A stretch of DNA of 44,983 bases from a virus: positions 1 to 44,983 of IMG/VR virus record IMGVR_UViG_3300028920_000117, one strand, 5' to 3'. This document shows, in pieces, positions 18,216-40,355 of this stretch (its first letter is position 1; every line of letters starts with the position of its first letter). The position numbers were made by a program, and so were the translations under genes. The notes below the pieces were generated by a model. That model did no database searches, was not told the origin of the DNA, and was given only the letters and a program-made list of their open reading frames with translations.

Positions 18216-18620
18216 CTATAATTTGCTTGCGACTATGTCCCAGAGTTCCGGTTCCCAGCAAATCGCAAGCCCCTTCCCGGGGCCACAATGAGTTGGGGTT
18301 CCGCCATTTGCGCCGCAAAGAATGGCGTGCCCGAATCCCTTTCCAGAGCGAATGGCGTCTCCGGGGCCGTCCCCTCTGCGTGCCGCATGCCCCGGCCCCT
18401 TGCCAAAGCGGCAGGCTCTCCCTCTGCCAGCGCCTTCGCGGTACGCATGCCCACTGTCCTCTCCAATAACCCAGATACTTCCATTATCACCTCCCCGAAG
18501 GCCATATCTGGTATTTCCCCTTGCCACAATTGCATGGTTCTGTCCGTCGGCATTTCGCCAATAAATGCCGCGTTCGAGCACAGAGCCTTCAATCCACTCT
18601 TTGTGCTTCCAAATTTTCAT
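18216..18620 (-). CDS. Glycine-decapeptide repeat protein, family member 1
   Basis: 134 residues, GGGGGGA three bases before the ATG. Head domain (residues 1-52): WKHKEWIEG, GIYWRNADG, YGLRGGDNGSIWVIG. Then about six decapeptide units of the form xGxGxAxRxG (EGAGRGRACR, RGDGPGDAIR, SGKGFGHAIL). The C-terminus departs from the repeat (ICWEPELWDIVASKL). Five further copies exist in this window. The repeat suggests a compact beta-solenoid; the Gly/Asp/Arg pattern is not the RTX calcium nonapeptide. Function unknown. Its start overlaps the stop of the next upstream family gene. Confidence 0.75.
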   Translation of the reverse strand: MKIWKHKEWIEGSVLERGIYWRNADGQNHAIVARGNTRYGLRGGDNGSIWVIGEDSGHAYREGAGRGRACRFGKGPGHAARRGDGPGDAIRSGKGFGHAILCGANGGTPTHCGPGKGLAICWEPELWDIVASKL

Positions 18621-19027
18621 TTGTCCCCCCCTTCGGTTTGGCCATGTCCGCTACCGGACCGAAGCGCAATTCCCTGGCCCGGACCGCTGCGATTGGCGTG
18701 TCCGTCGCCCGATCCGTCTCGAATGGCGCCGCCATTTCCTTCGCCTTCACGAAAAGCGTGCCCGTTCCCGGCACCGAGGCGGATAGCCCATCCGTCGCCT
18801 TGTTCGTAGCGCTTGGCGTCTCCATCGCCGGCCCCGTCTCGAATGGCATCGCCGACACCCGGGCCATGTACCGTGATGCTGCCGTTGACTGCGCCGCGCA
18901 AACCATAGCCATAGTAGTTTGAGCCCTCGACATACACGACATGGTCATGTCCGTCGGATTCCATCCAATAGATTCCTTCCTCGAATGTCGTGTCCTCTAC
19001 CCACTCGTCATGTGTCCAAGTTGTCAT
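18617..19027 (-). CDS. Glycine-decapeptide repeat protein, family member 2
   Basis: 136 residues. ATG 19027 is preferred over the codon at 19054 because GGGGGGTGG lies just upstream and the protein then starts MTTWTHDEWVEDTTFEEG like its relatives. Head motifs: GIYWMESDG, YGYGLRGAVNGSITVHG. Seven or eight decapeptides follow (DGAGDGDAKR, LGAGNGHAFR, EGEGNGGAIR, DGSGDGHANR, SGPGQGIALR). The C-terminus is short and polar. The start overlaps the stop of 19024-19233 (ATGA), so this is an operon of four minus-strand genes. Confidence 0.75.
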   Translation of the reverse strand: MTTWTHDEWVEDTTFEEGIYWMESDGHDHVVYVEGSNYYGYGLRGAVNGSITVHGPGVGDAIRDGAGDGDAKRYEQGDGWAIRLGAGNGHAFREGEGNGGAIRDGSGDGHANRSGPGQGIALRSGSGHGQTEGGDK

Positions 19028-19233
19028 CGCTTGCCACCCCCCGGCCGGCACCACAAAACAAGCGGCTCATCTGCCACCTTGTCACGACGCTCGGCCGCGG
19101 AAATCCGTTCGAGCTCGTCCGCAAGCACTTCCGCCGCGGTCATCGCACGAGTCAGTCGCAACCGCACAGGTGTATCCTCTGGTGCCTTCGCCGCTTCGCG
19201 TACCGCCGCGATCGCTTCCTCTACCGTCATCAT
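19024..19233 (-). CDS. Small helical protein, unknown
   Basis: 69 residues; the start at 19233 (MMTVEEA) is set by GGGAGGT upstream, within a 55-bp leader that recurs at 44821-44875. The sequence is helical and charged (AIAAVREAAKAPED, AAEVLADELERISAAERR) with no TM segment. The 19-residue frame at 44754-44813 begins MTVGEALRYAR and may be a shortened relative. Function unknown; it is part of the early minus operon with two repeat-family genes. Confidence 0.6.
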   Translation of the reverse strand: MMTVEEAIAAVREAAKAPEDTPVRLRLTRAMTAAEVLADELERISAAERRDKVADEPLVLWCRPGGGKR

Positions 19234-19283
19234 TCGCCACCTCCCGTCCAGCTTTTTCCACCGGATCACATCGAGTACCCCCG
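19229..19283 (-). repeat. 55-bp leader repeat, copy 1
   Basis: Read on the minus strand, it matches 44821-44875 with two mismatches, from CGGGGGTACTCGATGT to the start codon GCGAATGAT, and includes the ribosome site GGGAGGTGG. Both copies sit directly in front of a gene start, but the genes downstream are unrelated. It may be a conserved translation or regulatory leader, or a recombination joint. Confidence 0.8.
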
Positions 19284-19421
19284 CGTAATGTCGCGCGTTC
19301 TCTGCACTAGCGTTTCGGGCTCGCACTTCGCCTTGCGCCTGAGCGCGCGAGCAGTGCAGCGCTTGGCGAATCTGCGGTAGCCCGGCGATTTTTCTCCCCG
19401 GCTGATTTTTTCAACGCGCAT
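19266..19421 (-). CDS. Small basic protein, first gene of minus operon
   Basis: 51 residues; start at 19421 chosen because it follows AAAGGGG and the promoter 65 bases upstream. Highly basic (RRFAKRCTARALRRKAK) with two Cys, ending TRGYSM. Its last codons lie inside the repeated 55-bp leader. A small nucleic-acid-binding protein is possible, but nothing more specific can be said. Confidence 0.5.
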   Translation of the reverse strand: MRVEKISRGEKSPGYRRFAKRCTARALRRKAKCEPETLVQRTRDITRGYSM

Positions 19422-19485
19422 CGTCGTACCCACCCCTTTCGTTATCACTCGCCCGCCCCTTCCCCGCCCGTCGTCTCGCCCCTGG

Positions 19486-19514
19486 ATCATGGCATAGTAT
19501 CGGTTCCGTGTCAA
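19486..19514 (-). promoter_or_regulatory. Sigma70-like promoter for minus early operon
   Basis: Minus-strand TTGACA (19514-19509), 17-bp spacer, then CATGAT (19491-19486). The -35 is perfect and the -10 matches four of six. It would start transcription near 19479, about 58 bases before the 51-residue gene. It lies in the divergent region 19422-19672, which otherwise shows only A-rich DNA and the plus-strand promoter candidate. Confidence 0.6.
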
Positions 19515-19624
19515 GCCGCATAAAGAAAAATTTGCGGTGGATAAAAAATTCTTCCGTAAATGGCCGCCAATAAATGGCTTACGTCGTTCAGCCGCTTGGA
19601 AAAAACAAAAAAATGCTAAAGGGC

Positions 19625-19652
19625 TTGATTGGCGTGGCCGATGGGCTATACT
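19625..19652 (+). promoter_or_regulatory. Candidate promoter for plus early operon
   Basis: TTGATT (19625-19630), 16-bp spacer, TATACT (19647-19652). It would start near 19659, only about 14 bases before the nuclease ATG, so the leader would hold little more than the ribosome site AAAGGGG. A reasonable but unproven match; it is divergent from the minus operon promoter. Confidence 0.4.
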
Positions 19653-19672
19653 TGGCCGAAAGGGGTAATCAC

Positions 19673-20572
19673 ATGAATCCGATCGTATCACTCGGTCAGG
19701 GCGACTACGCCCGCGACATCAAGGCGGAAGATATTCTTGGCAGCAAGAAAGACTGCGCCGAGCGCTACCCGTTCCTCATCCGCGAGCCGGAGGAAGTCTA
19801 CCACGCGATGCGGGGAAGCCATCTCACCGCTCACGCCCTGGCTGAATTTCGGCACTGCCCGGCTCAGTACCGAGCGTATGAGGTCGGTCTAGAGCCGCGA
19901 CCGGTGAGCGCGGCATACCTCATCGGCCGCGCGATCCACACGCTGTGGCTTGAGGGTCGAGAGGCGTATCAGGCCGCGTACCAGATCGGCGGCGAACCGC
20001 GGAACAAGCAGACCGGAAAGGTGATGTCGCCGACCAGCAGGGTTTATAAGCAATGGGTAGAATCACTTGACAAGCCGCTCATCAGAGAGAGTCAGTCTTA
20101 CACGATTGAGATGGTGTATGCCTCGCTGTGCGTTCACCCTGTGACAAGAGAACTCTTCAGGGACGGAGTCGCCGAGGGCGTGGTGCGAACGGACATGTTC
20201 GGGCACGCGTGCCAGTCTCGGATTGATTTCATCGGTCGGTACGACGGTCTCGATATCGTCGTCGATTTGAAGACCGCGGACTCGCTCGACGGCTTCGAGT
20301 CAGCGGCGATTGAGTTTGAGTATATCCATCAGTTGGCGTTCTACCGCAAGATGATTATAAACGCAGACGGCCCCGATTCTGCATATTATATTGTTGCAGT
20401 TGAAAAGAAATTTCCCTATCGCGTGGGGGTGTGGAATGTTCCGCATTATACGCTTGACATGGCCGAATGGGATAACACGCTTGCGCTGAAAGAGTTGCAT
20501 GAGTGTCGTGAATCGGGAGTGTGGCCGACAAGATACGAGCAGCCAGGGGTGCTTAAGTTTCCGGAATCGTGA
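19673..20572 (+). CDS. Exonuclease VIII-like PDDEXK nuclease (DUF3799)
   Basis: 299 residues from ATG 19673, with AAAGGGG upstream; a longer frame to 19574 lacks a ribosome site. Signature motifs are all present: LIGRAIHTLWLEG (catalytic-core His), SRIDFI (Asp), VVDLKTADSL (Asp, Lys) and QLAFYR. Such phage nucleases degrade one strand from DNA ends to feed a single-strand annealing protein; the Sak4-like ATPase downstream is the likely partner. First gene of the replication and recombination operon. A second divergent nuclease of this type lies at 42326-43186. Confidence 0.85.
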   Translation: MNPIVSLGQGDYARDIKAEDILGSKKDCAERYPFLIREPEEVYHAMRGSHLTAHALAEFRHCPAQYRAYEVGLEPRPVSAAYLIGRAIHTLWLEGREAYQAAYQIGGEPRNKQTGKVMSPTSRVYKQWVESLDKPLIRESQSYTIEMVYASLCVHPVTRELFRDGVAEGVVRTDMFGHACQSRIDFIGRYDGLDIVVDLKTADSLDGFESAAIEFEYIHQLAFYRKMIINADGPDSAYYIVAVEKKFPYRVGVWNVPHYTLDMAEWDNTLALKELHECRESGVWPTRYEQPGVLKFPES

Positions 20573-20579
20573 GTAAAAC

Positions 20580-20801
20580 ATGTGCAACAAAGAATTAGAA
20601 TTTGCAACAACCGACGAATTATTCGAGGAACTGCGATCCCGATTTGACGCTTGCGTTTTTGTCGGTGTTTCTGATCATACCACAACAAAAATAAAAACAA
20701 GTTACTATTACTCAGGAAGCATACCGACATGCCTGGGTCTTTGCGATATGACGCGCCGATGGCTATTGGCCGAAGAGGCCAAATCAAAAGATGAAGGATG
20801 A
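20580..20801 (+). CDS. Small protein, unknown
   Basis: 73 residues, starting seven bases after the nuclease stop. Sequence has an acidic helix (FATTDELFEELRSRFDACVF) and a strand region with TSYYYSGSIPTCLGLCDM, a pattern seen in small early phage proteins. Four Cys, not in a clear zinc-binding arrangement. No function assigned. Confidence 0.6.
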   Translation: MCNKELEFATTDELFEELRSRFDACVFVGVSDHTTTKIKTSYYYSGSIPTCLGLCDMTRRWLLAEEAKSKDEG

Positions 20802-20813
20802 AGGATAAATAAA

Positions 20814-20966
20814 ATGTCAATAGAAAGCAAAGCCCGAATAGCAGATAATTTTCACATCGCATCAAACGGAGACCTTGTTTGGTCTATTTTGTACGATAAT
20901 GGAGACTGGCATAATCATAGATGTCCTCTATATATTTTGAGGACAATTATACAAATTAATTATTGA
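20814..20966 (+). CDS. Small protein, possibly the 5' half of a frameshifted gene
   Basis: 50 residues; ATG 20814 with GAAGGATAAATAAA upstream. Contains DLVWSILYDNGDWHNHRC. The frame ends at 20966 in an A/T-rich stretch, while another frame, open from 20941, runs on to 21177 with protein-like sequence but no ribosome site of its own. A one-base indel near 20945-20965 would join them into a protein of about 120 residues. Either a genuine frameshift mutation or a sequencing error could explain this. Confidence 0.45.
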   Translation: MSIESKARIADNFHIASNGDLVWSILYDNGDWHNHRCPLYILRTIIQINY

Positions 20967-20994
20967 TTCGAATAGATCTATACCAGAATGGCAA

Positions 20995-21177
20995 GTGTCC
21001 GGGTGGGCCGCCGGAGAAGTTGCGGTGGCGTTCCTGCAAAAATGCGGTCTTGTAAATCTTAGCGGAGACGACATTGCTCTCAAAAAAGGGGAAATTGCAG
21101 TTAGGGGAATTAAAGAGTATTTGATACTGCAAGAAAATGGATTCTTGCAGAACGAAAAGGGGAAACAAAATGACTAA
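20995..21177 (+). CDS. Small protein or 3' half of a frameshifted gene
   Basis: 60 residues counted from GTG 20995, but no ribosome site precedes it and the frame is open and protein-like back to 20941 (DSNRSIPEWQV before the GTG). Ends KGKQND, overlapping the ATPase start at 21170. Gly/Ala-rich helix (GWAAGEVAVAFLQKCGLV) and a charged tail. Read together with 20814-20966 it probably forms one gene. Confidence 0.4.
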   Translation: MSGWAAGEVAVAFLQKCGLVNLSGDDIALKKGEIAVRGIKEYLILQENGFLQNEKGKQND

Positions 21178-22051
21178 TCTAATCGAAACAATCTCCGAAA
21201 CACTGCGCGCCGCGCCGCAACGAATCGTGGTCTACGGGCCGCACGGCATCGGAAAGAGTTCGTTCGCCGCGAGCGCGGAGCGGGTGGTCTTCATTCAGAC
21301 CGAGGACGGGCTCGCGAACATCGACGCGAAGGCATTCCCGATTGCAACCGAGTATGAGCACGTCATCCAGTTCCTGGATAGTCTCCTGAGCGGCGAGCAC
21401 GAATTCATGACGCTCGCGGTCGACAGTTTGGACTGGCTCGAGCGTCTGATCTTCGATCGTGTGTGTCAAGATAAGAATGTGAAGTCTATTGAAGACATCG
21501 GGTACGCTAAAGGCTATCACTTTGCGCTCTTATATTGGCGCGAGTTTGTTTCCAAACTGAACCTTCTCCGCTCCGAACGCGGTATGCAAATCATTCTGAT
21601 TGCGCACGCTCAGATCGAAAAGTTCCAGGACCCGACCGCAGACAGTTACGGTCGGTATTCGCCCGGACTTCACAAGTACGCGTCGGCTCTGATTCAGGAA
21701 TGGGCCGACGAGGTTTTGTTTGCAAACTACCGCGTCCACACTAAGATGGTGGATGAGGGCTTCAACCGCAAGCGGGCGCAGGGCATCGGCACCGGGGAGC
21801 GTGTTCTCAAGACCACCGAGCGCCCCTCACACGTCGCCAAAAATCGCCTGGGCCTTCCTGACGAGTTGCCGCTGAACTTCGGGGCATTCGCTCGGTATCG
21901 GGACTCGATCAGTTCTCGTGAGCCCAGCAATAAGGACGGGGCAGAGTCGCCGTATGTTGAGCCGGGGCGCGGGAAGCGGATTCACACGCCCCGAAATGAT
22001 CCGGACAAGCCGACATCTCCAATCGTGGACATGACGGAGCGGGCGCCATAG
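21170..22051 (+). CDS. Sak4-like RecA-family recombination ATPase
   Basis: 293 residues, ATG 21170 after AAAAGGGGAAAC. Walker A GPHGIGKS at 23-30, Walker B strand MTLAVDS with Asp85, and a sensor strand IILIAHAQIEKF. This AAA_24-type, RecA-like pattern is found in Sak4 single-strand annealing proteins of phages. It would work with the Exo VIII-like nuclease upstream and the DUF669 and RusA proteins downstream. Residues after 235 are polar and probably disordered. Segment B uses a RecT-type protein for the same role. Confidence 0.8.
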   Translation: MTNLIETISETLRAAPQRIVVYGPHGIGKSSFAASAERVVFIQTEDGLANIDAKAFPIATEYEHVIQFLDSLLSGEHEFMTLAVDSLDWLERLIFDRVCQDKNVKSIEDIGYAKGYHFALLYWREFVSKLNLLRSERGMQIILIAHAQIEKFQDPTADSYGRYSPGLHKYASALIQEWADEVLFANYRVHTKMVDEGFNRKRAQGIGTGERVLKTTERPSHVAKNRLGLPDELPLNFGAFARYRDSISSREPSNKDGAESPYVEPGRGKRIHTPRNDPDKPTSPIVDMTERAP

Positions 22052-22061
22052 GGAGGCGAAC

Positions 22062-22454
22062 ATGAAAAACTGGACACACGCTGAGTGGATCAAGGGCGCA
22101 GCACTGGAGAATGAAATCTACTGGAGAGAGGCGGACGGGCGATATCATCGAGTCAGCGCAAAAGACAAAACGAAATATGGTCTGCGCGGAAGGTCATTTG
22201 GCACCATTATCGTGCATGGAACCGAAGATGGAGACTCCATCCGTGATGGCTGGGGACCAGGCGATGCGATCCGCGAGGGGGTAGGTATGGGTAGTGCCTA
22301 TCGCTGGGGATCTGGGGACGGGATGGCTTTTCGCATCGACGGGGGGCACGGAGATGCTAGGCGTCTCGGACTGGGCCATGGTTACGCGTGCAGGTTTGCC
22401 GGACGTGGGCGGGCAATTTCCAGCGGCTGTTGTGGGCGGGCAATATATGGATAA
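22062..22454 (+). CDS. Glycine-decapeptide repeat protein, family member 3
   Basis: 130 residues, GGGAGGCGAAC before the ATG. Head: WTHAEWIKGAALENEIYWRE...YGLRGRSFGTIIVHG. Repeat units: DGWGPGDAIR, EGVGMGSAYR, WGSGDGMAFR, LGLGHGYACR, ending RAIYG. It is nearly identical to the broken copy at 39957-40355, with 148 identical bases (22240-22387 against 40030-40177, inverted). After its stop, the motif AGCAATCGAAT recurs behind two other family copies. It interrupts the recombination operon between the ATPase and the DUF669 gene. Confidence 0.75.
   Translation: MKNWTHAEWIKGAALENEIYWREADGRYHRVSAKDKTKYGLRGRSFGTIIVHGTEDGDSIRDGWGPGDAIREGVGMGSAYRWGSGDGMAFRIDGGHGDARRLGLGHGYACRFAGRGRAISSGCCGRAIYG
22240..22387 (+). 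repeat. 148-bp exact inverted repeat, copy 1
   Basis: Identical to the reverse complement of 40030-40177, bounded by single mismatches at 22239 and 22388. It encodes the decapeptide part of the repeat-family genes. The flanks remain closely similar over the whole gene, so the exact block reflects recent exchange or duplication, and is also a place where assemblies can be joined wrongly. Confidence 0.9.
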
Positions 22455-22470
22455 GCAATCGAATAAACCT

Positions 22471-22552
22471 GAACGCGCGAACGCATTCGCCGTGATGGGG
22501 GGGGGGTGGTGGAGTCATCTGAATGGGCAGCATCTGAAAAAGGAGGTCGAAC
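22471..22552 (+). repeat. Gene-junction remnant with poly-G run
   Basis: Bases 22471-22496 match the 3' end of the gene at 38154-38402 (coding ERIRRDGG...VI). A run of ten G (22497-22506) follows, then TCATCTGAATGGGCAG, matching the stop and next gene start there. Nine G would restore the reading frame into the ancestral stop. A near-identical remnant lies before the family copy at 40355. It appears to be a scar of gene insertion. Confidence 0.65.
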
Positions 22553-22948
22553 ATGAAAAACTGGACACACGAGGAATGGATCAAGGGCGCAAAACTGGAG
22601 GACGGAATCTACTGGAGAGAGGCGGACGGGCAATATCACCGCGTAAGGGCTAAGTGGATGACCAATTACGGCCTGCGCGGCCCAAATGCTGGGACCATTG
22701 ATGTCTACGGAACCGGCGGTGGATACGCAATCCGCGATGGTGATGGACTTGGAAATGCTATTCGCAAGGGTTCCGGCGAAGGCGGCGCCATTCGCCTAGG
22801 ATCCGGCGAAGGGATGGCATGTCGCATCGGCTGCGGCTATGGGCACGCCAGACGTGGCGGATCGGGCGATGGAGACGCATGCCGGTTTGGCGGACATGGA
22901 CGCTCCTCTCGCACCGGCAGCGGATACGGCCGGGCAATATATGGATGA
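22553..22948 (+). CDS. Glycine-decapeptide repeat protein, family member 4
   Basis: 131 residues, AAAAAGGAGGTCGAAC before the ATG. Head: WTHEEWIKGAKLEDGIYWRE...YGLRGPNAGTIDVYG. The clearest repeat of the family, in register: DGLGNAIRKG, SGEGGAIRLG, SGEGMACRIG, CGYGHARRGG, SGDGDACRFG, then SGYGRAIYG. Its 5' flank is nearly identical to that of the broken copy at 40355, while that copy's body is closer to member 3, so copies have recombined. Function unknown. Confidence 0.75.
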   Translation: MKNWTHEEWIKGAKLEDGIYWREADGQYHRVRAKWMTNYGLRGPNAGTIDVYGTGGGYAIRDGDGLGNAIRKGSGEGGAIRLGSGEGMACRIGCGYGHARRGGSGDGDACRFGGHGRSSRTGSGYGRAIYG

Positions 22949-22972
22949 GCAATCGAATGAGGGGAAAAAGGA

Positions 22973-24025
22973 ATGAGCAAAAACCCGACAGATGAATACA
23001 ACTACATCAATCCGAAAGAAACCTTTGATTTAGGATCTATATACCCATACGAAGTAAATAACTCGGGAACGCGACAAAGAGATTGGACTGATGTCGCGCG
23101 CTGCGACGAACTCAGGAGGCGGTGCTATTTGGAGTACTCAGAAAATGGTATATTGATCAAGCGATTCAGCCCCGAGTGGTGGATGAATCGAGCGAAACTC
23201 GAAGATGATGTATACTTTCTCGAAGCGGATGGCGCAGACTATCGAATTTCCTTTTCTTCGGATTACGATACTCCGTCCGTCGATCTGCTCCGATTTGGGC
23301 TTAGGGGGGATAATCCGGGCTCTATTCTCGTATACGGATGCGGAAAGGCGGACGTTATCCGCGACGGAGACGGACAGGGAGACGCAAAGAATTACGCAAT
23401 AATCGGAGACGCCATCCGGTGCGGAAATGGGGCCGGGAGCGCAATCAGAAAATCCCGCACCTATCATGACACCGGTAGCGCGATTAGAAAGGGCGGCGGA
23501 ACCGGGGACGCAATTTCCTACATGATGAGCGAAGGAAACGCATTTTGCGAGAGCGCGAGCGGAAATGCCATCCACCTATGGGGAAAAGACGGAAACGCAA
23601 TTCGTGGGGGAGGCTGGAAATATTCTAGCGGACACGCAATCCGTATCAGCGATAAGCCGGGAATGGGAAACTCAATTTATGAATCCAATGATTCAAGGGG
23701 CATGTCCCTGTTTATTGGTCTTCATGGCGACATCATCGGCGATGCGGTCTACGTCGGAGGGGGAGGGGGAATCGCTGCGATTTACGGGTACGGCGGGAGA
23801 ACCCTACACCACATTGAAAGCAAATCGAAAATTTACTTGATTAAACCTTCGATGTTTCATGAAAAAAGCATTAGAAAGACAAAGAAGGTTTGCAAGAAGT
23901 GGAAGAAAGCGGGGTTTAGAGAAGAATACAAAAAACTCATTAGCGAAACAGTCGAAATGGCAATCCGAGACGCATTGACTTACGACGCAAAAAACGTCCA
24001 TTTGTCTGTACCAAGATCGGTGTAA
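22973..24025 (+). CDS. Long glycine-repeat protein, family member 5
   Basis: 350 residues. A 60-residue N-terminal extension without a known motif precedes the family head (FSPEWWMNRAKLEDDVYFLEADG ... FGLRGDNPGSILVYG, about residues 65-125). Longer, less regular repeats follow to about 275 (GDGQGDAKNY, GNGAGSAIRK, GGGTGDAISY, KDGNAIRGGG). A basic helical C-terminus (KKVCKKWKKAGFREEYKKLI) of about 65 residues is unique to this copy. More AT-rich and diverged than its neighbours, it may be the older member. Function unknown. Confidence 0.7.
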   Translation: MSKNPTDEYNYINPKETFDLGSIYPYEVNNSGTRQRDWTDVARCDELRRRCYLEYSENGILIKRFSPEWWMNRAKLEDDVYFLEADGADYRISFSSDYDTPSVDLLRFGLRGDNPGSILVYGCGKADVIRDGDGQGDAKNYAIIGDAIRCGNGAGSAIRKSRTYHDTGSAIRKGGGTGDAISYMMSEGNAFCESASGNAIHLWGKDGNAIRGGGWKYSSGHAIRISDKPGMGNSIYESNDSRGMSLFIGLHGDIIGDAVYVGGGGGIAAIYGYGGRTLHHIESKSKIYLIKPSMFHEKSIRKTKKVCKKWKKAGFREEYKKLISETVEMAIRDALTYDAKNVHLSVPRSV

Positions 24026-24054
24026 TAACCATTCAACAAGAAAGGAAACAAAGC

Positions 24055-24534
24055 ATGATCGACATTAGAGGATTCAACGCGGAAGAGCACGAACCGGCAG
24101 GAAGTTTTGAGCCCATTCCCCCAGGAGACTACACCGCAATCATCACAGACTCAGAATCGAAACAAACAAAGTCAGGCAACGGCGAATATCTCCAGTTTGC
24201 GTTTCAAATCGTGGAAGGCGAGCACAAGGGCCGGGTGCTTTGGGCCCGGCTGAACCTCGACAACCCCAGCGAGACGGCGGTGAAGATCGCCAAGGGGGAG
24301 CTCTCGGCGATCTGCCGGGCGGTGGACGTGTTGACGCCAAACGATCCAGTGGAACTGCACAACATCCCGCTGGTGATCAAAGTTGGCACGAAGCGCCGTG
24401 AAGACAATGGCGAGACAACTAATGTAATTCGTGGTTACATTGCCAGCAAGAATGCGGCGGCCTATAGGCCGAATCGGGTCCCAATGGCTTCGGCGGGTGA
24501 CAGGCCCACTCCGCCGTGGATGAAGAATTCGTAA
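24055..24534 (+). CDS. DUF669 phage recombination-associated protein
   Basis: 159 residues, GAAAGGAAACAAAGC before the ATG. The pattern PPGDYTAIITDSESKQTKSGNGEYL, then FQIVEGEHKGRVLWARLNLDN and GELSAICRAV, is characteristic of DUF669 proteins. They accompany Sak-type annealing ATPases and RusA in phages and probably bind single-stranded DNA. OB-like strand pattern in the middle and a proline-containing acidic-free tail. It sits between the Sak4-like and RusA genes as expected. Confidence 0.8.
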   Translation: MIDIRGFNAEEHEPAGSFEPIPPGDYTAIITDSESKQTKSGNGEYLQFAFQIVEGEHKGRVLWARLNLDNPSETAVKIAKGELSAICRAVDVLTPNDPVELHNIPLVIKVGTKRREDNGETTNVIRGYIASKNAAAYRPNRVPMASAGDRPTPPWMKNS

Positions 24535-24555
24535 GCGAATAGAAAGGCTAACGGA

Positions 24556-25128
24556 ATGGCCCCTAAGACACGGACGTCATATTCGTTTACGGCCCCTTGG
24601 CCACCGAGCGTGAATCATTATTATCGCTCGGTGTCTTTGGAGCGAGGAAAGGGCGTACGTGTATACGTGAGCAAGGAAGGCAAGGAATACCGCAAGGATG
24701 CCATTTCCGCGCTCTTTCCCCTTCCTGCGGGCCTGCCCCTCCGGGGTAGGCTCGCGGTTTCGATCGATTTGTACCCGCCTTCAAACCGCGCATATGACGC
24801 CGACAACCGGCTCAAGCCTCTCCTCGACGCAATCGAGTACGCCGGAATTATCGAAAATGACGAGCAGTTTCACGAAATCCACGTTTACAAAACATCGTCC
24901 AAGAATGGAAAACGATTCAAAGGGGGGAAGGTTGAGGTCAGGATTTCTACTCTTTGCCCCGACGAGCCGTACCGCGTCGAGTACTACGAGGCGCTCGAAC
25001 TGCTTGCGATCGCGTGCCGCGACCATGAAGTTTCCTTTGTCCAGCACATGGCCGGCGTAGCGCAGCGAGAGTTGCAAAAAATGGGCGTGCCCGTGAAAGT
25101 GGAATGCTCCCCGGAGGATGACGGATGA
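24556..25128 (+). CDS. rusA: RusA-like Holliday junction resolvase
   Basis: 190 residues, ATG 24556. The RusA core is clear: APWPPSVNHYYR at the start, then DADNRLKPLLDAIEYAGIIENDEQ with the catalytic Asp cluster at about 76-90. RusA resolves four-way junctions during phage recombination and replication. About 60 residues longer than most RusA proteins: an added C-terminal region (from about 135, VEYYEALELLAIACRDHEVS) of unknown role. The stop overlaps the helicase start by four bases. Confidence 0.85.
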   Translation: MAPKTRTSYSFTAPWPPSVNHYYRSVSLERGKGVRVYVSKEGKEYRKDAISALFPLPAGLPLRGRLAVSIDLYPPSNRAYDADNRLKPLLDAIEYAGIIENDEQFHEIHVYKTSSKNGKRFKGGKVEVRISTLCPDEPYRVEYYEALELLAIACRDHEVSFVQHMAGVAQRELQKMGVPVKVECSPEDDG

Positions 25129-26801: not shown

Positions 26802-26815
26802 ACAGGAGATAAAGC

Positions 26816-27268
26816 ATGGAAAGGAAAAAAAGAAAAATGACAACCGAGCAGGCGTTGGCTGATGCCAAGAAAAACGCGGACGCAAATATTAGGGCAATTG
26901 AGGAAAAAGAAAGGAATGAAGCAATGAACAATGAACAACAGGATTCGAGCGTGCAAGTTGAAACGGAAGAGGCCGTGGAGGTTACGCCGAAGACAAATAA
27001 GAAAAAGTCCAAGGGACGCCGCCCGAGCGCGCTTGATTACGCGGTTATTGTTTTGATGAGAGAAAAAGGAAAGGCGCTAACCGTAAAGGAAATTACAGAT
27101 AGGGTCATTGCTGAGGGCTGGAATACCCAATGCAAGACCCCGAACGTGTCACTTTCCGTAGCGATGATCCGAGAAATCGCACAAAAGGGAGAATTCTCCA
27201 GGTTTGTAAAAAAGTCACGCGGAAGGTATGCGATTCGATATATTGATTTTGGCGCGGAGAGAGAGTGA
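26816..27268 (+). CDS. Winged-helix (HARE-HTH-like) protein
   Basis: 150 residues. Residues 1-60 form a charged helix (ALADAKKNADANIRAIEEKE) and a Lys-rich linker. Residues 62-140 match the HARE-HTH/delta-subunit type winged helix (SALDYAVIVLMREKGKALTVKEITDRVIAEGW). The N-terminal helix resembles that of the 43167-43637 protein (ALANAKASVDANLKAIAAAD), whose C-terminal domain differs. Probably a DNA-binding regulator or chromatin-type protein of the phage. Its gene is AT-richer than the helicase gene. Confidence 0.7.
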   Translation: MERKKRKMTTEQALADAKKNADANIRAIEEKERNEAMNNEQQDSSVQVETEEAVEVTPKTNKKKSKGRRPSALDYAVIVLMREKGKALTVKEITDRVIAEGWNTQCKTPNVSLSVAMIREIAQKGEFSRFVKKSRGRYAIRYIDFGAERE

Positions 27269-27271
27269 TAA

Positions 27272-34846: not shown

Positions 34847-34856
34847 GGATATACAC

Positions 34857-35366
34857 ATGGCAATTGTCACACTTCATATCCACCCGAACGGGATCATCAG
34901 GCCGTTTGAGCCGCCCGCAACGTACGACATCGACACCTGGGGATCGGGTCCAAACGAGAAGCCGGTCATCAATACGGCATTCTCTATCTCTGGCATCTAC
35001 GACGCGTATCTGTTTTTCGAGCACTTGCGGGACGTGCTCGTGAAAATGGAAAGGAACAACTACGACCTTGCTAGCCCATCGCACCTTGCGCACTCATTCA
35101 CGTTTCAGACCGACGACGGCACATTCCATATCAGGCCCGATCTGTATATCGATCAGTCGATGCCGGCAACTTGGGACATGGCCACCGGCACGACCGACGG
35201 GCCCGAGAACAAGCCGGTCATCTCCAGCGAGACGATTATCCCGTCCAGTTACGATGCCGAGTGGTTCGTGAATCAGGGCAGGGTTGCAATTCGCAAGATC
35301 GAAGGAATCAACGCGCAGCCCCAATCGCCCGGGCTCATTGGTCACAGGTTCACGTTTCAGACCTAG
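34857..35366 (+). CDS. Tail protein with duplicated 84-residue module
   Basis: 169 residues. Residues 1-85 and 86-169 are two copies of one module: HPNGIIRPFEPPATYDIDTW / RPDLYIDQSMPATWDMATG, NEKPVINT / ENKPVISS, YDAYLFFEHLRDVLVKME / YDAEWFVNQGRVAIRKIE, and both end H-(S/R)-FTFQT. The position after the spike suggests a spike-associated or capping protein. Its last 127 bases equal the window start, so two different downstream contexts exist for this gene. Confidence 0.8.
   Translation: MAIVTLHIHPNGIIRPFEPPATYDIDTWGSGPNEKPVINTAFSISGIYDAYLFFEHLRDVLVKMERNNYDLASPSHLAHSFTFQTDDGTFHIRPDLYIDQSMPATWDMATGTTDGPENKPVISSETIIPSSYDAEWFVNQGRVAIRKIEGINAQPQSPGLIGHRFTFQT
35240..35366. repeat. 127-bp exact direct repeat, copy 2
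   Basis: Identical to 1-127 and ending at the same TAG. Downstream here is a tail-tip gene; downstream of copy 1 is a lipoprotein gene. This is the junction between the segments called A and B in the summary. Confidence 0.95.
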
Positions 35367-35386
35367 GCACGAATTGGGGTCAACAA

Positions 35387-35746
35387 ATGGACCAGCGGCA
35401 TGAATACACGGTGAGGGTCGAGACGGCCGGACCGGCCTGCGCCATGCATACGCAAGCGGCAGAGGCCGGCACCGGCATGATTGACACCGCCGACGTGGAC
35501 CGTGTCTCGATCGAGTGGCATCCGATCGGCGCGGCCACGTCTGCCGAACTCGAGGTCCGCAAGAGCTACGGCAACGTGCGCGGAGAGAGCCAAGCGTTCA
35601 GCACGGCCGCCACGTTCACCAACGGGGCAAGGCGGAGGCTGGAACTGGACGTCCAGGATTGTCCGATGCTGGAGGTCATCATCACCACAGCCGGTGGTGC
35701 GGGTGCCATGGGCATCCTTCACGTGTACGGCTACAGTACTGTCTGA
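35387..35746 (+). CDS. Small tail-tip protein, homologue of 13259-13582
   Basis: 119 residues from ATG 35387, preceded by TTGGGGTCAACAA; longer frames upstream run through the previous gene in another frame. Beta-rich: HEYTVRVETAGPACAMHTQA, VDRVSIEWHPIGAAT, SAELEVRKSYGN, AFSTAATF, MLEVIITTAGGAGAMG. Order of elements and the neighbouring beta-helix gene match 13259-13582. Probably a tail-tip structural protein. Confidence 0.7.
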   Translation: MDQRHEYTVRVETAGPACAMHTQAAEAGTGMIDTADVDRVSIEWHPIGAATSAELEVRKSYGNVRGESQAFSTAATFTNGARRRLELDVQDCPMLEVIITTAGGAGAMGILHVYGYSTV

Positions 35747-35776
35747 CAGCGGCCGCGAAGGCCGGGAGCATCCAAA

Positions 35777-36568
35777 ATGGCAACGCGCACCCTGATTGAC
35801 GGATCGACAGACCTGACCCAGGCCAGCAGCTGGAGCGGGGCAACCATTCCGATCACCGGAGATGATGTCGTCATCCCTCGTGGCCGGCAGCACATCGACA
35901 CCTTTAGCCTGGCCGGCGTGCGACTTGAATCGCTTGAGATCGCGTTCAACGGCCGCATCGAAACCACGTCCGGTGCCGCCCTGGCGGTTGACGTGGACAA
36001 CAGCACAGACTCAATTGCCAAGATCAGCGGGACCGGCGCCACCCTGAGGCTGAGCGGTGGAACCACAAACGGCAAGTGGGAGAACACCCTGATCAACAGC
36101 CCCGGCTCATTGGTGGCGTTCACCAATGGGGAGTTCGAGGACATGACGGTGGAGTCCGGTACGGTCATCCTTGACTCGAGCGCGACATTCGACAACATGA
36201 ACATCCTCGGCGGCAGTGTCACCCTGGCCGATGTCGCTTCGGCGGCCGGAACATGCAACCACCGAGCGGGCACTCTCCACATCCACCGCCCGGGCGAATA
36301 CAACGTGTACGGCGGTAGCGTCGTCCTGGACGTGACCGTTGCCGGCACCACGACCATCAACCTGTACGGGGGCAGCTTGACGCACGTCAACGGCGACTTC
36401 GGCGGAGAGATCCACGGCATGTACATGGACGCGCTCGAGCAGGCCGCGACCATCGACACGGTGATCATCTCCAGCCTGGCGCGGATCAGGAGCACGAACC
36501 GGGTGACCTGGTCCAACGTCACCGAGCAGGGGATGACCGTGGCACTGCCACTGATCGGCAGCATATGA
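35777..36568 (+). CDS. Beta-helix-like tail protein, homologue of 13586-14413
   Basis: 263 residues. Starts MATRTLIDGSTDLTQASSWS and continues as short strands with Gly turns at regular spacing (GGTTNGKWENTLINSPGSLV, FTNGEFEDMTVESGTVILDS, SATFDNMNILGGSVTLADVA, LYGGSLTHVNGDFGGEI), the look of a parallel beta-helix. The A-segment counterpart has the same start and repeat spacing but differs in most residues. GC-rich compared with it. The stop overlaps the next start by four bases. Confidence 0.7.
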   Translation: MATRTLIDGSTDLTQASSWSGATIPITGDDVVIPRGRQHIDTFSLAGVRLESLEIAFNGRIETTSGAALAVDVDNSTDSIAKISGTGATLRLSGGTTNGKWENTLINSPGSLVAFTNGEFEDMTVESGTVILDSSATFDNMNILGGSVTLADVASAAGTCNHRAGTLHIHRPGEYNVYGGSVVLDVTVAGTTTINLYGGSLTHVNGDFGGEIHGMYMDALEQAATIDTVIISSLARIRSTNRVTWSNVTEQGMTVALPLIGSI

Positions 36569-37521
36569 CACGCCTGGCCACTTGCGAGGGCGGTACGCGT
36601 CTGGTGCGGTGCGGGAACCGGGTGCAGGTGTGCACAGATCAACGCCCCACCACATGCGACGGTTCCATAACCACCTATCGGTGTCCGTGCATCAGCGATA
36701 CATACGATCATGATATGCCCGAGTGCAATGTTGTCGTCGACAGAGTGATTCCTTGGCGAGCGCAAGTAATCGAGTGGGAGTGGGAATGGGAGTATATAGA
36801 AGAACGGGTGAGATCCTATGGCACCTCCGAATTGGTGCGCCGCAGCCATATAGGTGGTATTGCCGGCTATGCTTTTGCGTGGGGCCGGTACCCCACGATT
36901 CAAGAAATTCGCGACAACTACGGGATCGCCGAGGGGGAGTGGGGAGATGAAACATTCGTAATATACCCGCCTTATCAGTTCGGCGAATACACAACCGGAA
37001 CCTTTTTTGCGCAAAGAGTAATCGAAGAAGAAAACGGCGCCCTTGGGTTTCAATTTTACCCGAATAGATACGGCAGCATTGAACTATCCTGGCTTCCTTA
37101 TCACTATTACAAAATAAACGTGAGCATGTCGGGCCCTGTTTTAGGTCCCCGTACACTCGACTGCTTCGATGCCGCATTTGAACATTATGCCTATTTTATA
37201 GAAGCAAAAAGAACTTTCACGACCGAAGTATCTGGCGATGAGCGTGTTTTCAAGCAAACAACGGAGTTCTTTAGACGCGACACAAATATATCCACGCCGG
37301 ATACGGATAATAGTACTATAATAGAAAATGAAGTCACCACCGTTAGAATACTGCATGAATTTCCACACCTGATGGATACGTGGACTGGTCCGCAAGACTG
37401 GACTCCGTGCGAGCCGGTTCCTGAGGGTCCAGCCCAGCCCGCGAGCACCGATCCGAACGCCGAGGCGATCGCCAGGCAGCAGCAGCTCGACCCTCAGAAC
37501 CGGCCGGGCTGCTGCGGGTAG
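36565..37521 (+). CDS. Cys-containing tail-tip protein, relative of 14928-16643
   Basis: 318 residues; ATG overlaps the previous stop. A Cys-rich N-terminal module (TCEGGTRLVRCGNRVQVC, CDGSITTYRCPC) precedes an AT-richer middle (residues 60-270, aromatic: EWEWEYIEE, YPPYQFGEY, SWLPYHYYKI). The C-terminus (PASTDPNAEAIARQQQLDPQ, then GCCG) parallels the end of the 571-residue protein at 14928, and both follow a beta-helix gene. Here the three Cys modules are missing. Ends one base from a convergent minus-strand gene, without room for a terminator. Confidence 0.6.
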   Translation: MTRLATCEGGTRLVRCGNRVQVCTDQRPTTCDGSITTYRCPCISDTYDHDMPECNVVVDRVIPWRAQVIEWEWEWEYIEERVRSYGTSELVRRSHIGGIAGYAFAWGRYPTIQEIRDNYGIAEGEWGDETFVIYPPYQFGEYTTGTFFAQRVIEEENGALGFQFYPNRYGSIELSWLPYHYYKINVSMSGPVLGPRTLDCFDAAFEHYAYFIEAKRTFTTEVSGDERVFKQTTEFFRRDTNISTPDTDNSTIIENEVTTVRILHEFPHLMDTWTGPQDWTPCEPVPEGPAQPASTDPNAEAIARQQQLDPQNRPGCCG

Positions 37522-37522
37522 G

Positions 37523-37915
37523 TCACGCCCCTCCTTGATGGACCCGATCCCACTGGGAGAGTCGCCCGATCAGATGCTCTCGGGCGATCTCGGCCCGCTT
37601 CAGGAGCTCGCGGAGTTCAGACTCTTCCCGCTCGCGGAGCTGCCAGCCAGTCTCGGCAAAGCGGAGCGTCTCCCGTATCTGGTCGGGGTGCGCTGGGCTG
37701 TTGGGATCAAGCCACTCGAAACTGTGCCCGCCGCTCTCGAGGTCCTCGAGCGTGCACCGCACGGCCCGGGCTGCTTCGCGGATGTCCCGGTCGGGTTGGA
37801 ATCCGTCCGGGGGGCTGGTCGAGCCCCACCCAAACCACTCTGCGCCCGCGTCTCCCAGAGCGAGGTAGAGGTCGTGTAGCGCGTCCCGTAGTGCATCCAC
37901 CGCTGGAGCGATCAT
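37523..37915 (-). CDS. Small acidic helical protein, unknown
   Basis: 130 residues; AAGGGGG before the ATG, which shares one base with the preceding stop (TGATG). Strongly helical and acidic (DALRDALHDLYLALGDAGAEW, REREESELRELLKRAEIARE). No TM segment or known motif. It is the last gene of the segment B minus-strand operon and converges with the tail gene at 36565. Confidence 0.6.
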   Translation of the reverse strand: MIAPAVDALRDALHDLYLALGDAGAEWFGWGSTSPPDGFQPDRDIREAARAVRCTLEDLESGGHSFEWLDPNSPAHPDQIRETLRFAETGWQLREREESELRELLKRAEIAREHLIGRLSQWDRVHQGGA

Positions 37916-38154
37916 CAGGAACCCCCTTCCTGCGCAGACATGCTGCGCGCGTCAACGTATGCCTCCAAGTCCTTCAGGTGACGGAAGTGTGAACCAGTGG
38001 GTTGAAGGGTGTCTGGGTCAATCAGGAAGTACCACGGTTCTCTCACGCTGGAGAGCGTGAAGACATCGCAGAGCCTCCGCTCTACCCATGGATACCCGCG
38101 GTGTGTTCCTTCTCGAATGTTTTTTCCTTGGCCAGTCATTAGATACCGTCCCAT
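37915..38154 (-). CDS. Small protein, unknown
   Basis: 79 residues. Pattern WVERRLCDVFTLSSVREPWYF, then IDPDTLQPTGSHFRHLKDLEAYV. Start overlaps the previous stop as TGATG and has GGTGGGG upstream. Its first codons (MGRYLM) recur in degenerate form in the remnants at 22520 and 40375, in front of repeat-family genes. No function assigned. Confidence 0.6.
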   Translation of the reverse strand: MGRYLMTGQGKNIREGTHRGYPWVERRLCDVFTLSSVREPWYFLIDPDTLQPTGSHFRHLKDLEAYVDARSMSAQEGGS

Positions 38155-38402
38155 CAGATGACCCCACCATCACGGCGAATGCGTTCGCGCGTTCGAGCCT
38201 TGGCCGATCTCTCGATGCCACCGATTATTCCCATGAGGTGCATTCCCTTTGATTGGACCCATGGATCTTTTGCACCAATTAGAGTCTTCGCGCGTCGCTT
38301 GATCTCCCTGATCGCATACTGGTAGTCTTCCACGGTCATCTCGTCATTCCGGACCATCCTGCGGTGTGGAATGCGCTTGGTGCGAGTGTTCGCCTTTCCC
38401 AT
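38154..38402 (-). CDS. Small basic protein, unknown; source of junction remnants
   Basis: 82 residues; ATG 38402 with GGAGG six bases upstream, preferred over an upstream ATG at 38438 that overlaps the previous gene. Very basic ends (KANTRTKRIPHRRMVR and ARTRERIRRDGGVI) flank a helical middle (DYQYAIREIKRRAKTLIG). The last eight or so codons are repeated at 22471 and 40386, where they stand alone. A nucleic-acid-binding role is plausible but unproven. Confidence 0.6.
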   Translation of the reverse strand: MGKANTRTKRIPHRRMVRNDEMTVEDYQYAIREIKRRAKTLIGAKDPWVQSKGMHLMGIIGGIERSAKARTRERIRRDGGVI

Positions 38403-38403
38403 T

Positions 38404-38958
38404 TCACGCCTCCAGGTCGATCTTGGTGCCATTCGCATTTGCTGCAGTATTGCCGTACGCCTTAGTCGCGTGCGCCGCGAACGCCTGCGTGTATGCGGTG
38501 ATGTCGTTACCGTCCTCGTCCACGATGGTCACGGCAGCGCAGAATCTCGCAAGTAGTTCGCACGCAGGCGCGATCAGGTCGCGGACCATCGCTGCCTTGA
38601 CATCGTCAGCGTGCAACTTCGTGTATGCCGCCTGAAGAATTGAGAGACGATCGCCGACCTCGGTTGCAAGGCCCTGAAAGTCGGGGCCTTCAGGTGTCAT
38701 CAGGTCGAGCGCACCGTATCGGTGGTGGCGTAGCTCTAGGTCCTCGACCTGCCGCATCGCGGCCTCGTAGATCGCGTCGCCGAGCCGCTTGGCTACGCCG
38801 CACCTCTCGGCGTTGCTGCCGTAGCTCGAGTATCCGATGCGGCCGTCGGCGGTCGTGAACAGCAGCACGGCGCGATCAACGTTTGCTTTAAGTTGCTCGC
38901 CAATGCTTCGGGCGGCGTCGCGCACGATCTTGATCTCCGGTCTCTGTTTCCATGTCAT
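38404..38958 (-). CDS. Phage protein of unknown function
   Basis: 184 residues; ATG shares a base with the preceding TAA. Middle part has a strand region (DRAVLLFTTADGRIGYSSYG) followed by helices (ERCGVAKRLGDAIYEAAMRQ, MVRDLIAPACELLARFCAAV). No TM segment or catalytic motif recognised. Translationally linked to both neighbours. Role in the early operon unknown. Confidence 0.6.
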   Translation of the reverse strand: MTWKQRPEIKIVRDAARSIGEQLKANVDRAVLLFTTADGRIGYSSYGSNAERCGVAKRLGDAIYEAAMRQVEDLELRHHRYGALDLMTPEGPDFQGLATEVGDRLSILQAAYTKLHADDVKAAMVRDLIAPACELLARFCAAVTIVDEDGNDITAYTQAFAAHATKAYGNTAANANGTKIDLEA

Positions 38959-39320
38959 TATTTGATTCCTTCCGTTTTCTTCAAAACATAGGCAGAATCG
39001 GCAACTGCAAGCCCACGCTCAAAGCTTTCGAGCTCACTCCGTGTATACATGACCAGTTCCCGAAACTCGTCTCTGGTTTTGAGAAGCGCCTCTTGGTGGT
39101 CAGTCGTCAAATTACTGTGCGTGGACGGATAATAGACGTAGCCCGGTACGCGCTCGCCAGAAACGGCGCCGTCTGGATCTACCATCTCGCACCACTCAAC
39201 ATCGTATGTACGCTTGTCGGCATGCTGTCTGATAATCACGGCAGCGCGCAGCTTGCCGGAGTAGTCGAGTCTGGTGCCGTACAGGATATCGCCAGGTTTC
39301 AGATTCATTGATTCGCTCAC
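38958..39320 (-). CDS. Small SH3-like protein, unknown
   Basis: 120 residues from GTG 39320, preceded by a full-length ribosome site AGGAGGTGA seven bases upstream, which decides the start. The sequence begins with strands as in small SH3-like domains (NLKPGDILYGTRLDYSGKLR, AAVIIRQHADKRTYDVEW) and ends in a helix (EALLKTRDEFRELVMYTRSE). The fold is inferred; no function assigned. Confidence 0.6.
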   Translation of the reverse strand: MSESMNLKPGDILYGTRLDYSGKLRAAVIIRQHADKRTYDVEWCEMVDPDGAVSGERVPGYVYYPSTHSNLTTDHQEALLKTRDEFRELVMYTRSELESFERGLAVADSAYVLKKTEGIK

Positions 39321-39331
39321 AGAATCACCTC

Positions 39332-39460
39332 CTATCTGACTCTGAACGGGTCAATCCGCACGATGGTCGGGCCACGACGACGACGAGGCGGCGCCGCGAT
39401 CGCCCAGAGAATCACGAGCATAATGCCGCTCAGGGCAAGCCCTGTCGCAAGGATCATCAT
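39332..39460 (-). CDS. Small single-TM protein
   Basis: 42 residues; ATG 39460 overlaps the stop of the nuclease upstream (ATGA) and follows GAGGGTGGG. Residues 1-23 form one hydrophobic segment (MMILATGLALSGIMLVILWA), followed by a basic tail (PPRRRRGP). Too short for family assignment. The overlap and ribosome site support it as a real membrane microprotein. Confidence 0.6.
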   Translation of the reverse strand: MMILATGLALSGIMLVILWAIAAPPRRRRGPTIVRIDPFRVR

Positions 39461-39879
39461 TCACCCACCCTCTGAATGTTGTGGTACAGCATTGCCATCG
39501 CCTTCTGCTGTGCCTGCGGTGTGCTTGCTGTCACGACGTAGGGATCGCGAGAGAGGCAACATGCAATCTTGAACGAGATCAGCCAGACGTTACGGCGTTC
39601 CTTGTGGATCAGGATGGGGGTGTGGCCAACCGGACAATCTCGGTATGCCTGCTCGATCGCCATGCAAAACAGCCGATTTCCGATCTGCAATGACTCGTTG
39701 TTCTTCACCTCGACGTGGAATCGTGACCAGACCGGGTGGTCTACGGCACACTCGACATCGCCCACGACGCCGGCCGAACGGTGCTGTTGGGTGCGGCGCC
39801 ACGGTACGCCTGTCAGTTCTTCCATCAGATTGGCGGCGAACCGCTCGCCAACCTTTCCCTTGCGGCTCGAGTTGACCAT
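39457..39879 (-). CDS. Hjc-like PDDEXK nuclease, probable junction resolvase
   Basis: 140 residues; ATG 39879 with GAGG upstream, rather than the longer frame through the repeat gene. Core motifs: KGKVGERFAANLMEEL (Glu of helix 1), VVGDVECAV (Asp), then HVEVKNNES (Glu-x-Lys). This is the arrangement of archaeal-type Holliday junction resolvases and related restriction-like nucleases found in phages. It would serve in segment B the role that RusA serves in segment A. C-terminal half helical and less conserved. Confidence 0.7.
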   Translation of the reverse strand: MVNSSRKGKVGERFAANLMEELTGVPWRRTQQHRSAGVVGDVECAVDHPVWSRFHVEVKNNESLQIGNRLFCMAIEQAYRDCPVGHTPILIHKERRNVWLISFKIACCLSRDPYVVTASTPQAQQKAMAMLYHNIQRVGE

Positions 39880-39956
39880 CTGTACCTCGCTTCGCTGGAA
39901 AAGCCCGGGACGCAACACGAGGGACGCCCCGGACCTGTTCAAGTTCATTCGATTGC

Positions 39957-40355
39957 TCACCCGTACATTGTCTGGCCGCAACCATTGCCCGTACGATATG
40001 CTTGCCCGCGTCCCCCACCAAACCTGCATGCGTAACCATGGCCCAGTCCGAGACGCCTAGCATCTCCGTGCCCCCCGTCGATGCGAAAAGCCATCCCGTC
40101 CCCAGATCCCCAGCGATAGGCACTACCCATACCTACCCCCTCGCGGATCGCATCGCCTGGTCCCCAGCCATCACGGAAGGAGTCTCCGTCTTCGGCCCCG
40201 TGTACGACAATGGTCCCAAATGCCTTTCAGCGCAGACCATATTTCGTTTTGTCTTTGGCGCTGACTCGATGATATCGCCCGTCCGCCTCTCTCCAGTAGA
40301 TTCCATTCTCCAGTGTTGCGCCTTTGAGCCATTCCTCGTGTGTCCAGTTTTTCAT
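39957..40355 (-). pseudogene. Glycine-decapeptide repeat gene, family member 6, with premature stop
   Basis: Starts at ATG 40355 with AAAAAGGAGGTCAAAC upstream and reads MKNWTHEEWLKGATLENGIYWRE split over the family head. At 40227-40229 a TGA replaces the GGA found in member 3, right after YGLR. The frame then stays open for a further 90 codons of intact repeats (EGVGMGSAYR, WGSGDGMAFR, LGLGHGYACR) to a TGA at 39957. A recent nonsense mutation is the simplest explanation; TGA is an ordinary stop elsewhere here. A truncated head of 43 residues could still be made. Confidence 0.8.
40030..40177 (-). repeat. 148-bp exact inverted repeat, copy 2
   Basis: Reverse complement of 22240-22387 without mismatch. 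It lies downstream of the premature stop, so the untranslated part of this broken gene is the best conserved, which points to very recent divergence or gene conversion. Confidence 0.9.

What the first reader, a model, noticed from the sequence alone, without database searches (positions are those of the whole stretch)
18216..40355. Six-member family of glycine-decapeptide repeat proteins
Six genes share a head of about 50 residues (W-T-H-E-E-W-I, G-I-Y-W-R-x-A-D-G, Y-G-L-R-G) and a C-terminal repeat of period ten, xGxGxAxRxG. Repeat number and ends vary. They lie in early operons of both segments and on both strands. I do not recognise the family. The repeat could form a narrow beta-solenoid; Arg and Asp at fixed positions could bind DNA, RNA or a host protein, possibly as inhibitors of defence. 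This is the best candidate for an undescribed system.
Basis: partly seen in the sequence, partly recalled or inferred. Interest (0 to 1): 0.85.

Follow-up and report, generated by a model that had tools for sequence, protein, structure and literature searches.

The report
Phage ten-residue-repeat solenoid protein family
This virus carries an undescribed family of small proteins built from an almost perfect ten-residue repeat, predicted to fold into thin rods with a constant core and a changeable surface, and the genes look like movable accessory cassettes rather than core virus machinery, possibly tools for binding or blocking host proteins.

Summary
Six genes share a ~50-residue head and a C-terminal period-10 repeat (consensus G-x-A-x-R-x-G-x-G-x; 227 of 241 successive repeats spaced exactly 10). 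The sixth is broken by an in-frame TGA. The family matches nothing in Pfam, PHROGs, NCBIfam or the PDB. DNA patterns for the repeat found true relatives on 13 other IMG/VR contigs and in six bacterial assemblies, often as tandem paralogues. AlphaFold2 gives a narrow one-strand-per-coil solenoid for two distant members (pLDDT 97.9 and 92.1) with no PDB fold match; AF2 is known to over-call solenoids for perfect repeats, so this is support, not proof. Odd repeat positions are nearly fixed and even ones free, consistent with a constant core and variable surface. The invariant Arg has core parity and net charge is not conserved, against general DNA mimicry or Arg-driven DNA binding. In 11 relatives of the host operon, Sak4 and SSB sit side by side; here M3-M5 lie between them, so they are accessory. 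The window looks chimeric (bases 1-127 exactly equal 35240-35366), so M6 probably belongs to another genome, yet is 93% identical to M3: a mobile cassette. Function (host-protein binding, perhaps counter-defence) is inferred.

The parts
18216..18620 (-). Member M1 (134 aa): head (1-~52), about 5-6 coils, divergent C-terminus
   Evidence: ORF and alignment; profile E 1.4e-43
18617..19024 (-). Member M2 (ATG at 19024, 135 aa): head plus about 7 coils; overlaps the M1 start by 4 bases
   Evidence: profile E 1.3e-47
22062..22454 (+). Member M3 (130 aa): head plus about 7 coils
   Evidence: E 1.8e-39; 93% identical over 349 nt to the M6 region
22553..22948 (+). Member M4 (131 aa): head plus about 8 coils; AlphaFold2 model mean pLDDT 97.9, pTM 0.91
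22973..24025 (+). Member M5 (350 aa): divergent, irregular coils, extra N- and C-terminal regions
   Evidence: E 5.7e-29
39957..40355 (-). Member M6: mosaic copy of M3 (body) and M4-like upstream and 3' end; interrupted by an in-frame TGA
40227..40229 (-). In-frame TGA in M6 (codon 43, GGA in M3)
22052..24054 (+). Accessory block M3-M4-M5 between Sak4 and SSB; absent from 11 of 11 relatives of this operon
21170..22051 (+). Neighbour: Sak4-like/AAA_24 ssDNA-annealing ATPase
   Evidence: phrog_124 E 3.3e-49, PF13479 E 6.5e-52 (scored on the longer ORF 21137-22051)
19673..20572 (+). Neighbour: RecE/exonuclease VIII-like (DUF3799)
   Evidence: scored on the longer ORF 19574-20572
24055..24534 (+). 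Neighbour: ssDNA-binding protein (DUF669)
24556..25128 (+). Neighbour: RusA-like resolvase
1..127 (.). 127-nt exact direct repeat of 35240-35366: sign that 1-35239 is a closed circle and the rest a chimeric or alternative join
35367..44983 (.). Segment B (RecE/RecT/PDDEXK_15 and M6) with different tetranucleotide usage

Best explanation
A family of accessory (moron-like) phage genes for small binding rods. Each protein has an N-terminal head that caps a narrow beta-solenoid with one coil per ten residues (G1-x2-A3-x4-R5-x6-G7-x8-G9-x10). Odd positions form a constant core (Gly, Ala, and an Arg ladder that probably fills the space left by the glycines); even positions point outward and vary, with a mostly hydrophobic/aromatic stripe at position 4. 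The genes move as single-gene cassettes between phages, drop into early operons, duplicate in tandem, recombine with each other and change coil number. The most likely job is to bind and block or redirect a host (or competitor-phage) protein early in infection, such as a defence or DNA-processing factor, with the outer face setting the target. Shown: family, periodicity, constraint pattern, copy number, accessory insertion. Predicted: the fold. Inferred: core Arg, binding role, target. Rough confidence by part: fold 0.8, accessory cassette 0.85, protein-binding antagonist 0.4.
For: Fold: AF2 of M4 with 25 aligned sequences pLDDT 97.9, pTM 0.91, one strand per ten residues; AF2 of L140 (14 coils) pLDDT 92.1, pTM 0.88. 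Independent of AF2: spacing exactly 10 in 227/241; entropy of odd positions 0.0-0.9 bit against 2.8-3.8 bit for even ones in 322 units, R5 98%, A3 95%, G9 98% (units were picked by a score that rewards these residues, so the percentages are upper bounds); pN/pS 0.17 odd, 0.38 head, 1.33 even, pooled over pairs. Accessory: in 11 related phage loci Sak4 is directly followed by SSB and no family member is present. Mobile: M6 shares 430 nt at 88% with the M3 region while almost nothing else of segment B matches segment A; codons 61-108 of M3 and M6 are identical. Multicopy: 2-3 tandem copies on other contigs, 5 plus 1 here. Different heads carry the same repeat, one being a domain seen without repeats in about 394 phage records; once the repeat is fused to a DUF429 domain beside a type I restriction system and an integrase.
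Against: AF2 is reported to give confident but unrealistic solenoids for perfect repeats, with internally stacked charges as the warning sign (PMC11795689); an inward Arg ladder is just that kind of feature. Excess change at even positions is confounded: repeat arrays are homogenised in codon use, so positive selection is not shown. No target, expression or phenotype data. Some members lie next to packaging genes (G007, G008), and some bacterial copies are not visibly in prophages.
Confidence: 0.42

Rival explanations
1. Accessory factor of phage recombination/replication: a rod that binds ssDNA, the annealing protein or a RecBCD-type nuclease (a Gam/Abc-like role).
For: M3-M5 lie between Sak4 and SSB, M6 downstream of RecE/RecT; members in other contigs lie near RusA, RecE/YqaJ, gp2.5-like SSB or RuvC-like genes. 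One Comamonadaceae copy adjoins recC/recB. Phage RecBCD inhibitors are known (PMC9836394).
Against: All 11 relatives with the same operon lack the genes; G007 and G008 members lie by packaging genes; the recC neighbourhood is unique among 351 sampled genomes of that family; net charge not conserved. Early phage operons contain such genes anyway.
Confidence: 0.2
2. Nucleic-acid binding protein or DNA mimic: the Arg ladder contacts phosphate, or the acidic face mimics DNA as in pentapeptide-repeat gyrase protectors.
For: Invariant Arg in a long array; many Asp at positions 2, 6, 8 and 10.
Against: Arg5 has core parity; repeat-part charge (K+R, D+E) runs from 20, 6 (L154) to 12, 22 (L002) and is balanced in most; coil number varies from 1 to about 33, unlike a fixed-length mimic.
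Confidence: 0.12
3. Virion or surface component (fibre, decoration, adhesin) or a self-assembling amyloid-like rod.
For: Outward stripe at position 4 is 76% hydrophobic and could mediate assembly; tail fibres often contain beta-solenoids (general knowledge).
Against: Genes lie outside the tail module in the window and next to replication genes in most contigs; small size; no PHROG tail match.
Confidence: 0.12
4. Disordered Gly/Arg-rich (RGG-like) RNA-binding or condensate protein, with AF2 over-calling a solenoid.
For: High Gly and Arg; known AF2 bias (PMC11795689).
Against: Strict ten-residue register and odd/even constraint over 322 imperfect units are not expected of a disordered chain; the repeats are divergent, not perfect.
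Confidence: 0.1

Closest known systems
Pentapeptide-repeat proteins (Qnr, MfpA, AlbG; PF00805)
   Same: Small cytosolic beta-solenoids with capped ends in bacteria and mobile elements, some binding a host enzyme (general knowledge)
   Different: Period 5 and four faces there; here period 10, G-x-A-x-R-x-G-x-G-x, no Pfam match, Foldseek hits to MfpA/AlbG/QnrB not significant (E 2.1-9.6, TM about 0.2)
Midge (chironomid) antifreeze protein, ten-residue coils (recalled, not tested by structure)
   Same: Ten residues per coil, very narrow solenoid
   Different: That repeat relies on Cys pairs and a Tyr ladder; here Gly/Ala/Arg; best PDB sequence match of the family profile is an antifreeze protein at E 0.23, not significant
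Curlin repeats (CsgA) and ice-nucleation protein repeats
   Same: Gly-rich repeats with ladders of identical polar residues (general knowledge)
   Different: Repeat lengths (16 for ice nucleation protein, PMC9418140; about 22 for curlin, recalled) and signature residues differ; CsgA fibril hit E 5.2, TM 0.17
Phage counter-defence or RecBCD inhibitor genes (Gam, Abc2, gp5.9)
   Same: Accessory early genes, often beside recombination genes
   Different: No sequence relation found to any named family; function here unproven

Membership tests
Pentapeptide-repeat proteins | Period-5 A(D/N)LXX repeat detectable by PF00805 | tested here: not met
   Period 10; no Pfam hit at E<=1 for M1-M4 and only unrelated sub-threshold hits for M5 and distant members
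Pentapeptide-repeat proteins | Significant structural match to MfpA/Qnr/AlbG | tested here: not met
   Foldseek E>1, TM about 0.2; none among the hits of the second model
RTX nonapeptide (GGxGxDxUx) proteins | Period-9 GGxGxDxUx | tested here: not met
   Spacing 10 and invariant Arg; the MARTX model match of L140 is 17.3 bits against a cut-off of 700
Midge ten-residue-coil antifreeze proteins | Paired Cys and stacked Tyr per coil (feature recalled) | tested here: not met
   No fixed Cys or Tyr position; Cys 16/322 and Tyr 52/322 at position 4
DNA-mimic proteins (Ocr, MfpA type) | Strong net negative charge | tested here: not met
   Charge balanced or positive in many members
DNA-mimic proteins (Ocr, MfpA type) | Surface charge distribution copies DNA | not testable with these tools
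   No model coordinates available
Phage moron/accessory genes | Present in one genome, absent at the same site in relatives | tested here: met
   11 of 11 relatives have Sak4-SSB without M genes
Phage moron/accessory genes | Own promoter/terminator | tested here: inconclusive
   Promoter- and terminator-like matches no more than in shuffles
Phage RecBCD inhibitors | Binds or inhibits RecBCD/AddAB | not testable with these tools
   Only gene-neighbourhood evidence

The most novel reading that the evidence does not exclude
A new solenoid architecture with an arginine ladder as its core, used by phages as a programmable binding scaffold: constant inside, freely changing outside, duplicated, recombined and passed between unrelated phages to track changing host defences.
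Probability: 0.22. Interest if true: 0.8.

Novelty: new variant of a known kind. Interest (0 to 1): 0.52.

Why it matters
If the fold is right, it is among the thinnest repeat scaffolds, with an unusual charged core and no solved relative. Its outer surface changes freely while the inside is fixed, the property wanted in a natural binding scaffold, and phages seem to trade it as a cassette. Finding its target could reveal a new counter-defence or host-takeover route. It also tests whether AlphaFold2 solenoids with stacked internal charges can be real.

Tried and rejected
Two DNA patterns with a wrong period of 8 gave only chance hits and are disregarded. tblastn hits to Natrialba phage PhiCh1 and Escherichia phage AVIO78A lie out of frame with the annotated genes and were rejected as low-complexity artefacts. 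A relaxed pattern added no true members when checked with the profile; the head-pattern hits L274/L275 are chance. Genome hits G424 and G476 are low-complexity readings of other frames. L142 has no member. Positive selection on outward positions was tested but not claimed, because arrays are codon-homogenised. DNA mimicry was considered and disfavoured by charge. The recC neighbourhood in one Comamonadaceae assembly was followed up and found in no other of 351 sampled genomes.
Full report
Observation. Six frames in the window share the head motif W-x-H-x-E-W ... G-I-Y-W-R-x-A-D-G ... Y-G-L-R-G (looser in M5) and a C-terminal decapeptide repeat. M1 and M2 are on the minus strand at 18.2-19.0 kb, M3, M4 and M5 on the plus strand at 22.1-24.0 kb, and M6 on the minus strand at 40.0-40.4 kb. 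M5 is longer and irregular. M6 carries an in-frame TGA after YGLR, so it is either a pseudogene or makes only the head. Its body is nearly identical to M3 (codons 61-108 without a difference) while its upstream and 3' end follow M4, a sign of recombination between family members. M3 and M4 differ with pN/pS about 0.38, so the protein sequence is under selection.

The window is probably chimeric. Bases 1-127 equal 35240-35366 exactly. 127 is a usual final k-mer length of metagenome assemblers (general knowledge), so bases 1-35239 would close into a complete circular or permuted siphophage genome, with terminase, portal, major head, tail, recombination, helicase, primase and tail-fibre genes. 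The remaining 9.6 kb has a different tetranucleotide profile (correlation 0.63-0.71 with pieces of A, against 0.88-0.92 within A) and matches A only at M6, at 58 nt upstream of M2 and at 33 nt of the M3-M4 intergenic stretch. The most economical reading is two genomes, or two alternative segments, that share a mobile family cassette. An in-genome origin is not excluded without reads.

Is it a known family? M1-M4 gave no hit at E<=1 in Pfam or PHROGs; M5 and distant members gave only weak, unrelated, sub-threshold hits; NCBIfam gave nothing above its cut-offs, and PDB profile searches nothing significant (second profile best E 0.23). tblastn of M4 against 50,697 phage records found nothing. A DNA pattern for two adjacent repeat units found true relatives in IMG/VR, and a three-unit pattern found them in the genome collection, each checked by translation and by profile. 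They are rare: 13 contigs besides the window among 2.9 million scanned with these patterns, and six bacterial assemblies among 84,980 species (at least one, L151/L206, a phage-like contig by its RusA, RecE-like and DnaB/primase-like genes). Sampling about 400 genomes each of two phyla found none beyond the seed genomes, apart from low-complexity false hits. The repeat occurs behind different heads. The W-type head is shared with contig G003, which has three copies; the others share mainly the Y-x-L-x-G...G-S-I-x-V-x-G entry into the repeat. One head is a small domain found alone in about 394 phage records.

Anatomy of the repeat. In 322 units positions 1, 3, 5, 7 and 9 are G, A (95%), R (98%), G (84%, or D 12%) and G (98%). 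Units were picked by a score that rewards these residues, so the figures are upper bounds; the exact spacing is a separate check. Positions 2, 4, 6, 8 and 10 vary, with position 4 hydrophobic or aromatic in 76%. Strict alternation means an extended chain with odd positions to one side. Five large residues could not fit inside a ten-residue coil, so the odd, mostly tiny residues must be inside, and the Arg shares their side; it may fill the space left by the glycines, with Asp7 as an occasional partner.

Structure. AF2 of M4 in an alignment of 25 sequences gave pLDDT 97.9 and pTM 0.91 with one short strand every ten residues; AF2 of the 14-coil L140 protein gave 92.1 and 0.88. Foldseek found no significant PDB match for either and only weak viral ones. 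Caution is needed: AF2 gives confident, unrealistic solenoids for perfect repeats, and internally stacked charges are the typical flaw (PMC11795689). Here the repeats are natural and imperfect, an alignment was used, and the register and the odd/even constraint are visible without AF2, but an experiment is needed.

Genetics. In 11 related loci found with the window's Sak4 protein, Sak4 is followed at once by SSB and then helicase, and no family member is present. In the window two kilobases with M3-M5 lie between them. The genes are therefore accessory to that operon. Elsewhere members adjoin RusA, RecE/YqaJ, gp2.5-like SSB, DnaB or repressor genes, and in two contigs packaging genes. One bacterial copy is fused to DUF429 beside hsdSMR and an integrase; another lies next to recC in one assembly only.

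Evolution. Pooled pN/pS is 0.17 at odd positions, 0.38 in the head (which here includes irregular tails) and 1.33 at even positions. Some pairs exceed 1 significantly, but unit arrays are homogenised in codon use, so low synonymous divergence is expected even without selection. I conclude only that the outside is free or diversifying while the inside is fixed.

Mechanism. The pattern (accessory, mobile, multicopy, recombining, variable coil number, fixed inside and free outside) fits a binding scaffold whose target differs between hosts. A host or rival-phage protein bound early in infection is the most likely target; counter-defence is the leading version, a recombination-linked target the second. 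Nucleic-acid binding by the Arg ladder, DNA mimicry, a virion role and disorder are less likely for the reasons listed with the rivals. None of these functions was tested.

Noticed in passing
1-127 and 35240-35366; 35367-44983: Exact 127-nt repeat suggests that bases 1-35239 are a complete circular phage and the last 9.6 kb a chimeric or alternative join with different base-word usage.
   Followed up: partly
19673-20572(+) / 42326-43186(-) and 21170-22051(+) / 41550-42329(-): Two recombination modules in one record (RecE with Sak4, and RecE with RecT), consistent with two genomes.
   Followed up: partly
L002:3-362(-): Near the family members of this contig is another repeat protein with period-6 FGxxCx units and a T-Q-E-E-F...D-G head; Pfam reports only CCCH zinc-finger-like matches.
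   Followed up: no
L203:576-11765: Acidobacteria contig with hsdS, hsdM, hsdR, a decapeptide-repeat/DUF429 fusion, a second DUF429 protein and a phage-type integrase: a possible defence island.
   Followed up: partly
L145:12919-13302(-): The repeat is fused to a small KNGDVILHNG...IFGDSY domain that occurs without repeats in about 394 phage records as a hypothetical protein.
   Followed up: partly
44818-44880(+) and 19224-19286(-): 63 nt, 92% identical, upstream of M2 and at the contig end: another trace of sharing around the family genes.
   Followed up: partly
L148:582-3271: Two adjacent members with about 28 and 33 coils, the longest seen.
   Followed up: no
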